Origin: Ignavibacteriales bacterium
GTDB lineage: Bacteria > Bacteroidota > Ignavibacteria > T3Sed10-11
Direction: 5' to 3'
Assembly: GCA_003562775.1 (NCBI GenBank)
Contig: PWTU01000538.1
Span: 1-64,000, forward strand
DNA length: 64,000 nucleotides
The translations under genes and the position numbers were made by a program. Numbering within the stretch: the stretch's first letter is position 1; the number at the start of each line of letters is the position of its first letter. Under the pieces are notes generated by a model. It worked only from the letters and a program-made list of their open reading frames with translations, searched no databases and had not been told where the DNA came from. Below are positions 24,550 to 52,985 of this stretch, piece by piece.

Positions 24550-24571
24550 TAATTGTAATACAATATTACAC

Positions 24572-24598
24572 CTTAATGTAACATAATGTTACATTAAG
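24572..24598. promoter_or_regulatory. Perfect 13+1+13 inverted repeat CTTAATGTAACAT-A-ATGTTACATTAAG
   Basis: Direct reading; contains TGTAAC-N5-GTTACA, neighbouring TGTAAT-N5-ATTACA; about 90 nt upstream of a -24/-12 element. Confidence 0.6.
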
Positions 24599-24689: not shown

Positions 24690-24706
24690 CTGGCACGATT
24701 ATTGTG
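24690..24706 (+). promoter_or_regulatory. Candidate sigma-54 -24/-12 promoter CTGGCACGATTATTGTG
   Basis: GG at 24692-24693, GT at 24704-24705 (GG-N10-GT); about 55 nt before lipoprotein ATG 24760. Confidence 0.7.
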
Positions 24707-29912: not shown

Positions 29913-29929
29913 CCGGCACGAAGTTTGTG
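29913..29929 (+). promoter_or_regulatory. Candidate sigma-54 -24/-12 promoter CCGGCACGAAGTTTGTG
   Basis: GG 29915-29916, GT 29927-29928 (GG-N10-GT); about 60 nt before ATG 29987. Confidence 0.68.
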
Positions 29930-47924: not shown

Positions 47925-50534
47925 TTACTTAAACACAACCGCACCTCGTTCGTTTACATTAACCTCGATCGTATCCCCTTCGACGAACTTTCCCTCAAGT
48001 ATCCGGAGTGCAAGCGGGTTAGTAATGTGCTTCTGAATTACGCGCTTTAAAGGTCTGGCGCCGAATGAAGGATCGTAGCCGAGCTTGCCGATCCATTCTT
48101 TTGCATCGGGAGAAACCGTAAATCCTATGTTCTTATCGGCGAGCATCCTCTCGACATAGTTCAATTGCAAATCGACAATCTTGATAATTTCCTCCTGCGT
48201 CAGCGGCTGGAAGAGCACTATTTCATCGATGCGGTTGAGGAACTCCGGTCGAATCGTATCACGCAGCAACCGCATCAACTGAGAGCGAATATCGGCCATG
48301 ATATCGTCGCGGTTTTCCTCGTTCATCTCTCTCATTCGTTCCTGAATCAGGTGCGAGCCGATGTTCGACGTCATAATGACAATCGTATTTTTAAAGTTGA
48401 CGGTTCTTCCCTGGCTGTCGGTTAATCTGCCGTCGTCAAGCAATTGCAACAAAACATTAAATATCTCCGGATGCGCTTTTTCGATTTCATCGAGCAGCAC
48501 TACGGAATATGGCCGCCGACGGACCGGTTCGGTCAGTTGCCCTCCCTCTTCATATCCCACATAACCGGGAGGCGCTCCGATCAATCTCGTCACCGCAAAC
48601 TTCTCACTGTACTCAGACATATCGATGCGGACCATTGCCGATTCATCGTTGAACAGGAACTCTGCAAGCGCGCGGGCAAGCTCGGTTTTCCCGACGCCTG
48701 TCGTCCCGAGAAATATGAACGATCCGATCGGGCGGTTCTGATCCTGCAACCCCGCCCGCGATCTTCGAATAGCATTTGCAACGGCAGAGACCGCATCATC
48801 CTGTCCGATAACGCGTCGATGCAGCCGGCCTTCCAGATTCAGCAATTTTTCCCGGTCGCTTTCGAGCATCCGGTTAACCGGGATGCCGGTCCATCGCGCA
48901 ACTACCTCCGCAATGTCCTCCGCGTCGACTTCCTCTTTCAGCATCTTTATTTCTTTCTGTACTTCGGCAAGCTCTTCGGAGGTTTGTTTAATCTTTTTAT
49001 CGAGTTCGGTTATGGTACCATATCGCAATTCGGCAACTTTTCCGAATTCTCCCTCCCGCTCGTACCGCGCGGCATCGATTTTTGCCTGCTCGACCTGTTC
49101 CTTCATTGAGCGGAGATTTTGTATAAGTTTTTTCTCATGCTCCCAGTGTGATCGTAACCGGTTCCGTTCCTCGTTTAATCCGGACAGCTCGCGTGTGATC
49201 TCATCGAGACGATCTTTCGAATCCCGGTCTTTTTCACGCTTTACTGCCTCGCGCTCGATTTCAAGTTGTTTGATGCGCCGTTCAATATTGTCAAGTTCTT
49301 CAGGCATACTGTCTATCTCAATGCGCAGTTTCGACGCGGCTTCATCTATCAGATCTATCGCTTTATCGGGTAAAAACCTGTCGGATATGTAACGGTGACT
49401 GAGCTGTGCGGCTGCTACTATGGCGCCATCCGTTATATGAACCCCGTGATGTACTTCGTATCGCTCCTGCAAACCCCGGAGGATTGAGATGGTATCCTCG
49501 ACGGTCGGTTCACCGATAAAAACCGGTTGAAATCTTCGTTCAAGCGCCGGATCTTTCTCGATGTGCTTGCGATATTCATCAAGCGTTGTCGCCCCGATGG
49601 CGCGCAGCTCACCTTTTGCAAGCGCCGGCTTGAGCATATTAGCGGCATCGACGGAACCTTGTGCGGAACCTGCTCCAACGAGCGTGTGCAGCTCGTCGAT
49701 AAAGAGGATAATCTCTCCGTCGGATTCCTGGATCTCTTTTAACACGGCTTTCATACGCTCTTCAAATTGTCCCCGGAAACTCGTTCCGGCTACAAGCGTC
49801 CCCATATCGAGTGCAACAATGCGTTTCGTTCTCAAGCCATCGGGGACGTCGCCCTGTACAATACGGTGAGCGATGCCTTCGGCAATCGCCGTTTTACCGA
49901 CGCCCGGTTCACCGATAAGCACGGGATTATTTTTAGTACGTCTCGACAACACTTGCAGCACACGGCGGATTTCCTCATCGCGGCCGATTACCGGATCTAA
50001 TTTTCCGCGTCGTGCAAGTTCATTTAAATCCCGACCGTATTTCTCGAGTGCCTGGTACTTTTCTTCCGGATTCTGATCGGTTACACGGTGAGAACCTCGT
50101 ATTTCTCTCAACACTTTTAATACAGTGTCGTGCGATACACCCTGCGTGTTTAACAATCCCGATACGTCGCCGGCATCTTTTCCGGTCATTGCAAGCAGAA
50201 GATGCTCGAGACTGACGTATTCGTCTTTCAGGTTTCGCGCTTCTTTCATTGCGCTTTCCAGCACGGCACCGGTCGGTTGACTGACGTATAGATTGCCAAG
50301 CCCTGCACCCGATACCTTCGGCAGTTTTTCGATCAACTCATTGGTCTTAATTTTTAAATGGTCGATGTTTGCACCGATCTTTCTCAAAATGGACGCAGTT
50401 ACCCCTTCACTATCCTGCAGCATTGCCGCAAAGATGTGTACCGGCTCTATTGCCTGATTACCGTAACTCGAGGCAATCTCCTGTGCCTGCTGTACGGTTT
50501 CCTGGGATTTATATTTTAATTTGTTCATATTCAT
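47925..50534 (-). CDS. clpB: ATP-dependent chaperone ClpB
   Basis: Two Walker A ([30 protein letters not shown]), [26 protein letters not shown]; middle coiled-coil present. Confidence 0.96.
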
Positions 50535-50560
50535 GGTTAATCACCTGACGTGTCCTTTAC

Positions 50561-50621
50561 AAAAAACTTGCCCGGCACGTTCAGTATTTATATTCTCTCT
50601 CATACGACGCGTGCCGGGCAA
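50561..50621 (-). terminator. Terminator-like hairpin in the clpB 5' leader
   Basis: 12-bp perfect arms TTGCCCGGCACG (50568-50579) and CGTGCCGGGCAA (50610-50621), followed on the minus strand by G-TTTTTT (50567-50561). Confidence 0.6.
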
Positions 50622-50691
50622 ATAAAACATAATAATAGCGGCTCCACACACACCTTGAGAGCGATCTACACAACTCTCATGGTACGTTGGC

Positions 50692-50741
50692 AACCGTTAT
50701 TCATTACTATTAACCGTTAATAACCGTTATTAACTGTTAGA
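50692..50741. repeat. 10-bp periodic degenerate tandem repeat (AACCGTTATT-type)
   Basis: AACCGTTATT|CATTACTATT|AACCGTTAAT|AACCGTTATT|AACTGTTAGA. Confidence 0.65.
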
Positions 50742-50746
50742 TTACA

Positions 50747-52687
50747 TTAGTTATTCTTCTGCTTATCCTTATCGTCCACTACTTCGTAGTCGGCATCTTC
50801 GACATCGTCTTTGGTTTCTTTGTCTCCCGGTTCTTGTTGTTGTTGTTGATCGCCGGGTTGATCTTGTTGTCCTTCGCCTTCAGCCGATGCCTGTTGATAC
50901 ATCTTTGTCGATGCTTCGTTCCACTTTTCGTTAAGCTCTTCCATTGCTTTCTTTATTTCATCCACACTACCTGTCTTCTGTACCTCTTCGAGCTTACCTA
51001 CCGCTTTTTCTATGTCCTCTTTGGTGGAGGCATCGAGCTTTCCTTCGAACTCCTTGATTTGTTTTTTAGTCTGATAAACAAGATTGTCCGCCTGGTTCCG
51101 CGTTTCAATTTCTTCACGCCGTTTTTTGTCTTCCTCTGCATGCTGCTCGGCGTCATTCTTCATCTTTTCGATTTCCTCCTGCGACAGGCCGCTTGAGGAG
51201 GTAATACGAATGCTTTGCTCTTTGTTTGTCGCTTTGTCTTTCGCAAAGACATTCAGTATGCCGTTCGCATCTATGTCGAATGTTACTTCTACCTGCGGAA
51301 CACCGCGCGGTGCAGGCGGAATACCGTCAAGATGGAAGCGTCCTAGCGTACGATTGTCTCTTGCCATTTCACGCTCACCCTGCAGGACGTGTATCTCGAC
51401 CGACGTCTGGTTATCCGATGCAGTCGAGAATATTTCGCTCTTGCGGGTCGGTATTGTCGTGTTGGCGGTAATCAACTTGGTCATCACACCGCCGAGCGTT
51501 TCGATGCCGAGCGAAAGCGGCGTTACGTCGAGCAACAGTACATCGCTCACATCACCCGATAACACACCGCCCTGAATTGCCGCACCGATCGCTACCACCT
51601 CATCGGGATTGACGCCTTTATGCGGATCTTTCCCGAATAGTTCTTTTACAACTTCCTGTACTTTCGGTATTCGGGTCGAACCGCCGACGAGAATTACTTC
51701 ATCAATATCGGATGGTTGCAATCCGGCGTCTTTTAATGCTTTCTTGCAAGGTTCAATCGTACGTTCAATCAGGTCTTCAACAAGCTGTTCAAACTTGGAT
51801 CGTGTAATGGTCATTTGCAAGTGTTTCGGACCTTCCTGCGTCGCCGTAATAAAGGGCAGATTCACATCGGTCTGACTTGATGAAGACAGCTCGGTTTTTG
51901 CTTTTTCTGCAGCTTCTTTCAATCGCTGCAGCGCCATGGCGTCTTTTCGCAAATCGACACCTTCTTGCTTTTTAAATTCATCGGCGATGTAATCGACGAG
52001 ACGCTGATCGAAATCATCACCGCCGAGATGTGTGTCGCCGTTTGTAGATTTGACTTCGAACACACCATCGCCCAATTCCAATATGGATATATCAAATGTA
52101 CCGCCGCCGAGGTCGAACACCGCGATCTTTTCATCTTTGCCTTTTTTATCGAGGCCATATGCAAGCGATGCCGCCGTCGGTTCGTTTATGATGCGGCGTA
52201 CATTCAAGCCGGCAATTTCGCCTGCTTCTTTTGTTGCCTGCCGTTGAGCGTCATTAAAATACGCAGGTACGGTAACAACCGCGTCGGTGATCTTTTCACC
52301 GAGATGATCTTCGGCAGTTTGTTTCATCTTCTGCAATACCATAGCACTGATTTCCGGCGGCGAATACACCCGGTCGCCTATCTTAACCCGTGCGGTATTG
52401 TTGTCGCCTTTGACAACTTCGTACGGTACAAGTTCAATTTCGTGCTGTACCTCATTATAAAATCTCCCCATAAATCTTTTAATCGACGAGATTGTATTTT
52501 TTGAATTAGTAACCGCCTGCCGTTTTGCGGCCTGACCGACCAACCGCTCGCCATTTTTGGTAAATGCAACAACCGAGGGTGTCGTTCTGCCGCCTTCGGC
52601 ATTCGTGATCACAACCGGATCGTTTCCCTCCATTACCGATACGACACTATTGGTTGTACCTAAATCTATTCCGATTATTTTACCCAT
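50747..52687 (-). CDS. dnaK: Chaperone protein DnaK
   Basis: [62 protein letters not shown]-terminal Q-rich/acidic tail. Confidence 0.98.
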
Positions 52688-52755
52688 GTAAAGTCACTCC
52701 TTTCGTTTTTGAAATTCTATATTTATGCGTATTTTTCCAATCGCTTACATAGAGT

Positions 52756-52773
52756 CACAAAGTTCGTGCCAAG
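52756..52773 (-). promoter_or_regulatory. Candidate sigma-54 -24/-12 promoter CTTGGCACGAACTTTGTG upstream of dnaK
   Basis: On the minus strand GG-N10-GT with TTGGCACG; about 70 nt upstream of dnaK ATG; matches the three elements in the 24-30 kb locus. Confidence 0.6.
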
Positions 52774-52985
52774 TATTGCCAAATCCGATAAGTTGTTATT
52801 TTTAAAGAATTTAAAGAAATAAACGAAGCAATTATTCGATTTCATTGTTCAGCCAATATGGCACCAAATCCGCGACTATGTCAGGTGGGTTCTTTAAGTA
52901 TAGACAAAATAGCAGTTTACCCTTTGATTTAGAATCTTTTTGGTTTTATATTGAATATAATTTATGTAACTTACCACAGCAAGCA

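What the first reader, a model, noticed from the sequence alone, without database searches (positions are those of the whole stretch)
52756..52773. dnaK preceded by the same sigma-54-like element as the signalling locus
Seen on the minus strand: CTTGGCACGAACTTTGTG, GG-N10-GT, about 70 nt upstream of dnaK, close to the 29913 element (CCGGCACGAAGTTTGTGG). Established: dnaK is usually under sigma-32 or HrcA/CIRCE control; I saw no CIRCE here. Inference: the 26852 activator could link envelope signalling to chaperone expression.
Basis: partly seen in the sequence, partly recalled or inferred. Interest (0 to 1): 0.65.

Follow-up and report, generated by a model that had tools for sequence, protein, structure and literature searches.

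The report
Sigma-54 switch controlling the DnaK chaperone
In this uncultured Ignavibacteria-class bacterium and across its relatives, the gene for the chaperone DnaK is preceded by a sigma-54 promoter and a paired upstream activator site instead of the usual heat-shock signals, and a widely conserved activator protein, not the one in the window, is the likely switch.

Summary
The element is at 52756-52773 (-), 69 nt before the dnaK ATG, with no CIRCE. It is a real sigma-54 promoter. It is almost invariant in three sister species inside a diverged intergenic region, and a -24/-12 site scoring at least 12 lies upstream of dnaK or of an hsp20-dnaK unit in 102 of 154 relatives (4% in shuffles, 1/136 in dnaK coding sequence). 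All 31 genomes tested encode sigma-54. groES in the same genomes carries CIRCE, so chaperone control is split. The proposed link to the 26852 activator is contradicted: that locus has its own palindromic enhancer and the protein is not conserved. The best candidate activator is a receiver-less, PspF-like protein in a miaB-lptE locus. It is found in 180/197 genomes, is the only sigma-54 activator of one complete genome that still has the dnaK promoter, and its DNA-reading helix changes in the one family whose enhancer changes. Sigma-54 chaperone promoters were already predicted elsewhere in Bacteroidota, so this is a new variant of a known kind. Heat inducibility is untested.

The parts
52756..52771 (-). 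sigma-54 promoter core TGGCACG-AACT-TTGTG (-24 GG at 52770-52769, -12 GT at 52758-52757); predicted start site about 52745
   Evidence: Read directly; near-invariant in G001, G003, G005 inside a diverged intergenic region; class-wide positional conservation. T at the -12 position is common in these promoters (38 of 112 T, 53 C). Start site inferred from the usual geometry.
52879..52883 (-). upstream TGACA half-site of the proposed activator enhancer (-112 from the -24 box)
   Evidence: same position in G001, G003, G005; the 6-mer CTGACA is invariant
52859..52863 (-). second half-site TGCCA (-92 from the -24 box), 20 bp from the first
   Evidence: TGACA at the same place in G001 and G003, degenerate (CGCCA) in G005; 20 bp is the second most common half-site spacing in the class (27 pairs)
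52697..52703 (-). AAAGGAG ribosome-binding site of dnaK
   Evidence: Read directly; conserved
50747..52687 (-). dnaK, 646 aa Hsp70
   Evidence: PF00012 E 2.4e-277; NCBIfam DnaK equivalog
47925..50534 (-). clpB disaggregase, next gene downstream; possibly co-expressed, own control unclear
   Evidence: Clp_N, AAA_2, ClpB_D2-small; only a weak sigma-54-like site 39 nt upstream

Best explanation
dnaK of this Ignavibacteria-class bacterium is transcribed by sigma-54 RNA polymerase from the element at 52756-52771. A bacterial enhancer-binding protein (bEBP) bound to the TGNCA half-sites at 52883-52879 and 52863-52859 opens the promoter. The bEBP is most likely the receiver-less, PspF-like protein encoded between miaB/SPOR genes and lptE (G000 contig C218:1383-2582), which also serves hsp20, and not the 26852 protein. 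groESL in the same cell is under CIRCE (HrcA-type) repression, so proteostasis is split between a repressor branch (GroESL) and an activator branch (DnaK, Hsp20). Shown here: promoter core, enhancer motif, their conservation, absence of CIRCE at dnaK, presence of CIRCE at groES, presence of sigma-54. Inferred: that the bEBP binds TGNCA, that it senses protein-folding stress, and that it is held in check in trans as PspF is (it has no sensory domain).
For: Core: near-invariant in the genus; score at least 12 upstream of dnaK or hsp20-dnaK in 102/154 loci against 14/154 on the reverse strand, 4.2% of shuffles and 1/136 dnaK coding windows; score at least 13 in 61/154 against 0/154. rpoN in 31/31 genomes, RpoN box ARRTVAKYRE in those read. 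Enhancer: TGNCA is the most enriched of all 256 gapped 4-mers upstream of 112 such promoters (371 against 69.6), concentrated 60-160 bp before the -24 box, spacing 8 bp seen 52 times against 0.16 expected, no enrichment in dnaK coding sequence. hsp20 of the genus has the same arrangement. CIRCE, exact or nearly so, at groES of nearly all genomes read, including this one. Activator: 180/197 class genomes, conserved miaB-SPOR-bEBP-lptE order, Sigma54_activat plus Fis-type HTH without receiver. G114 (1.7 Mb, 100% complete) has it as its only PF00158 protein and keeps a dnaK sigma-54 site with three TGNCA. In family f5 its recognition helix goes from SERTLYRK to mostly Q[TS]PRNIYRK-like, TGNCA largely disappears (mean 0.4 against 3.1, p = 0.0003) and GAAA-N-TTTC palindromes appear.
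Against: No expression, binding or mutant data. The helix/enhancer covariation may be a single event in one family, so its p-value overstates independence. G039 has the SERTLYRK helix and a perfect dnaK sigma-54 site without TGNCA, although two sister genomes have one each. The window genome's candidate activator reads GAFTSA instead of GAFTGA in the sigma-54-contacting loop. Some lineages with this activator (G014, G019, G020, G178) show no convincing dnaK sigma-54 site. hsp20 was not found in the window's own incomplete assembly.
Confidence: 0.76

Rival explanations
1. One reading: the 26852 bEBP of the window's signalling locus drives both its lipoprotein genes and dnaK from like sigma-54 elements.
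For: Same contig; 14 of 15 core bases shared between the 29915 and 52770 elements.
Against: Different enhancers: two exact TGTAAYA-N3-TRTTACA palindromes at 24554-24593, none at dnaK; TGNCA at dnaK, none at 24691 or 29914. The 26852 protein lacks a clear counterpart in the genomes compared while the dnaK promoter is class-wide.
Confidence: 0.04
2. dnaK is sigma-54 dependent and TGNCA is a bEBP enhancer, but the bEBP is another one, such as the receiver-bearing family of G000 C382:3303-4652 or a lineage-specific mixture.
For: Window-type genomes hold 12-20 bEBPs; the C382 family is present in all five promoter-positive genomes compared.
Against: The C382 family passes the threshold in only 80/197 class genomes. 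G114 has none of the others and keeps promoter and half-sites. The f5 recognition-helix change is in the miaB-lptE bEBP.
Confidence: 0.16
3. The element is part of an ordinary Bacteroidota sigma-A promoter (TTTG / TAnnTTTG) or a chance match, and dnaK is expressed constitutively.
For: GAACTTTG is one base from TAnnTTTG; a single-genome sigma-54 scan is at background.
Against: Upstream TTTG is at 14 bp, not 19-21 (spacing from general knowledge). Class-wide, the conserved bases are TGGCA and TTG[CT], not TAnn. Enrichment is strand-specific and absent in shuffles and coding sequence.
Confidence: 0.03

Closest known systems
Predicted sigma-54 chaperone cluster of Bacteroidota and Planctomycetota (PMC12316311, PLoS One 2025)
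   Same: Reports sigma-54 promoters enriched at GroEL, IbpA, GroES, GrpE, DnaJ and DnaK gene families; grpE and groES of Bacteroides thetaiotaomicron are stated to be sigma-54 dependent.
   Different: The text names Flavobacteriia, Bacteroidia, Cytophagia and Planctomycetia, and Ignavibacteria do not occur in it; the passages read give no enhancer motif or activator for the cluster. Here groES keeps CIRCE instead.
Chlamydia trachomatis hrcA-grpE-dnaK operon with tandem sigma-66 and sigma-54 promoters (PMC8762339)
   Same: sigma-54 promoter feeding dnaK.
   Different: There HrcA represses the sigma-66 promoter of the same operon and the activator is the two-component AtoC; here no CIRCE at dnaK and a receiver-less candidate activator.
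Escherichia coli ibpB sigma-54 promoter (cited in PMC4370416)
   Same: A heat-shock gene with a sigma-54 promoter.
   Different: There sigma-32 also transcribes the ibpAB genes; here no sigma-32 contribution is known (not tested).
PspF-type enhancer-binding proteins
   Same: AAA+ domain plus Fis-type HTH, no receiver domain.
   Different: Scores 294 against PspF cut-off 443, so not a PspF; miaB-lptE context; long linker before the HTH.

Membership tests
sigma-54 (RpoN) dependent promoter | GG-N10-G[C/T] core in TGGCAC-N5-TTG context upstream of a start codon | tested here: met
   T instead of C at -12, as in 38 of 112 related promoters
sigma-54 (RpoN) dependent promoter | genome encodes sigma-54 with an RpoN box | tested here: met
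   PF04552 in G000 and 30 relatives; RpoN box read in G002, G003, G004 and G024, not in G000 itself
sigma-54 (RpoN) dependent promoter | upstream binding sites for a bEBP | tested here: met
   TGNCA half-sites, position and spacing; binding itself not shown
sigma-54 (RpoN) dependent promoter | transcription lost without rpoN | not testable with these tools
   needs a mutant
HrcA/CIRCE heat-shock gene | TTAGCACTC-N9-GAGTGCTAA near the start | tested here: not met
   dnaK: best match has 6 mismatches in 18 bases; groES of the same genome: 0 mismatches
sigma-32 (RpoH) heat-shock gene | sigma-32 promoter upstream and rpoH in the genome | not tested
   No rpoH search was run
PspF equivalog | NCBIfam TIGR02974 above its cut-off | tested here: not met
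   294.5 against 443.55 bits; works like a receiver-less bEBP but is not PspF

The most novel reading that the evidence does not exclude
The miaB-lptE-linked, sensor-less bEBP is a general proteostasis activator of the Ignavibacteria and perhaps the wider FCB group: it replaces sigma-32 for dnaK and hsp20 through TGNCA enhancers, is controlled in trans by folding or outer-membrane assembly stress (its operon encodes LptE), and its DNA-reading helix has co-evolved with the enhancer sequence.
Probability: 0.45. Interest if true: 0.8.

Novelty: new variant of a known kind. Interest (0 to 1): 0.62.

Why it matters
Textbook control of dnaK is by sigma-32 or by HrcA/CIRCE. This points to a third arrangement over a deep branch: an ATP-driven, activator-dependent switch for DnaK and Hsp20 alongside CIRCE at GroESL. 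It supplies a defined enhancer, a named candidate activator and a genome (G114) with a single sigma-54 activator, so how these bacteria control proteostasis becomes directly testable.

Tried and rejected
A consensus sigma-54 scan of the window and genome was not enriched over controls, and the 15-mer at two mismatches gave no more hits than its reversed control, so single-genome scans were dropped for comparative tests. Autoregulation of bEBP genes through the enhancer: none convincing. bEBP genes next to dnaK: one in 70 loci. Contig C87 site TGGCACGGGTTTTGC taken first as the genome's hsp20 promoter: reading on shows no hsp20 there. The receiver-bearing C382 bEBP as activator: too patchy. Sigma-54 control of groES: not found as a rule; CIRCE instead. 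A first grouping script put G034 in both helix classes; statistics were redone without that error. A literature search for Ignavibacteria plus sigma-54 plus heat shock gave nothing.

Full report
What is there. On the minus strand, CTTGGCACGAACTTTGTG occupies 52773-52756, ending 69 nt before the dnaK start codon at 52687. The gene is an ordinary full-length Hsp70, followed by clpB; the divergent neighbour is a biotin-protein ligase gene. There is no CIRCE in the window. In the window the 17-mer recurs only at 29913 with three mismatches. Generic sigma-54 scans of the window and genome are at background, so the match taken alone would be weak.

Why it is real. The genome encodes sigma-54, as do all 30 relatives searched, and the RpoN box ARRTVAKYRE is intact in the four relatives read. 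Three sister species with 93-95% identical DnaK keep TGGCACG[AG]ACTTTGT[GA] at about the same distance inside an intergenic region that has otherwise diverged. Across the class (named by the record titles as Ignavibacteria and close relatives; the nearest named record, the metagenome bin SLQE01, corresponds to sister genome G005) the same core sits about 60-180 nt before dnaK, or about 490-730 nt before it, typically where an hsp20 gene comes first. In 154 distinct loci a score of at least 12 is reached in 102, against 14 on the opposite strand, 4.2% of shuffles and 1 of 136 dnaK coding windows; at 13 the figures are 61, 0, 0.3% and 0. The site profile is TGGCAY-N5-TTG[CT]. Strong sites also occur in records titled KSB1, Calditrichota, Balneolales, Rhodothermia, Gemmatimonadota, Zixibacteria and Chlorobiaceae.

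The enhancer. Upstream of 112 such promoters TGNCA is the most enriched of all 256 gapped 4-mers, 371 copies against 70 in shuffles, clustered 60-160 bp before the -24 box, with 52 pairs spaced exactly 8 bp against 0.16 expected and 27 pairs at 20 bp; dnaK coding sequence has TGNCA only at the shuffled level. Related loci are not independent, so these ratios are descriptive. The window has TGACA at 52883-52879 and TGCCA at 52863-52859, 20 bp apart, at -112 and -92; the first is invariant in the sisters and the second kept in two of three. hsp20 of the sister species has TGNCA at about -135, -127 and -90 with a sigma-54 core.

Division of labour. In the same genomes groES carries CIRCE, exact in the window's own genome, and as a rule no sigma-54 core. 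dnaK has none: the best CIRCE match has 6 mismatches in 18 bases. GroESL thus looks HrcA-controlled and DnaK/Hsp20 sigma-54-controlled. The HrcA gene itself was not searched for.

Which activator. Its locus has a different enhancer: two exact TGTAAYA-N3-TRTTACA palindromes at 24554-24570 and 24577-24593, 98-137 bp before the 24691 core, recognisable in two sister genomes, with no TGNCA. The protein has no good counterpart in the other genomes compared. Of the 17 bEBPs of this genome, one is nearly universal: a 400-aa protein with Sigma54_activat and Fis-type HTH but no receiver, in 180 of 197 class genomes, in a conserved miaB-SPOR-bEBP-lptE locus (the miaB and LptE names are my reading of the sequences). 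Two observations single it out. First, G114, complete at 1.7 Mb, has it as its only PF00158 protein yet keeps a dnaK sigma-54 core and three TGNCA. Second, in family f5 its recognition helix SERTLYRK is replaced, mostly by Q[TS]PRNIYRK-like sequences, and there the dnaK/hsp20 promoters have largely lost TGNCA (mean 0.4 against 3.1 per 130 bp; p = 0.0003) and several have gained GAAA-N-TTTC palindromes. That may be one evolutionary event, so it is suggestive, not proof. G039, with the ancestral helix and no TGNCA, is an exception; the window genome's GAFTSA loop is unusual.

How it likely works. Sigma-54 polymerase waits closed at dnaK; the bEBP oligomer on the TGNCA sites loops over about 100 bp and opens it by ATP hydrolysis (general sigma-54 mechanism). 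Having no sensor domain, the bEBP is presumably restrained in trans, as PspF is by PspA (established for PspF, inferred here). What it senses, and whether heat induces dnaK through it, is not shown.

What is known. A 2025 comparative study (PMC12316311) predicts sigma-54 promoters at chaperone genes in Bacteroidota and Planctomycetota; Chlamydia hrcA-grpE-dnaK has tandem sigma-66/sigma-54 promoters (PMC8762339); E. coli ibpB has a sigma-54 promoter (PMC4370416). The kind is therefore known. The extension to the Ignavibacteria, the TGNCA enhancer, the CIRCE/sigma-54 split and the candidate activator were not found in the papers searched; the library lacks most subscription journals.

Noticed in passing
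window 24554-24570 and 24577-24593 (+): Two exact TGTAAYA-N3-TRTTACA palindromes 98-137 bp before the sigma-54-like core at 24691 of a lipoprotein gene, recognisable in two sister genomes (L098, L102): a separate enhancer, plausibly for the 26852 bEBP.
   Followed up: partly
window 52895-52917 (-): AACTGCTATTTTGTCTATACTTA, almost invariant in four sister species upstream of the dnaK half-sites; could belong to the divergent biotin-ligase gene or to a second regulator.
   Followed up: no
window 50535-50746 (-): 212-nt dnaK-clpB gap with only a weak sigma-54-like site 39 nt before clpB; unclear whether clpB is co-transcribed or separately controlled.
   Followed up: no
L432-L440, L443-L451 (family f5): In this family TGNCA is largely replaced by GAAA-N-TTTC palindromes and the recognition helix of the miaB-lptE bEBP has changed with it.
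   Followed up: partly
L193:1383-2582 (+): The candidate activator of the window genome has GAFTSA in place of the sigma-54-contacting GAFTGA loop; G003 and G088 share it, and G007 reads GSFTSA.
   Followed up: no
L150, L152, L154, L156: Lineages (G019, G014, G020, G178) that keep the bEBP but have no convincing sigma-54 site or CIRCE at dnaK; how dnaK is controlled there is unknown.
   Followed up: no
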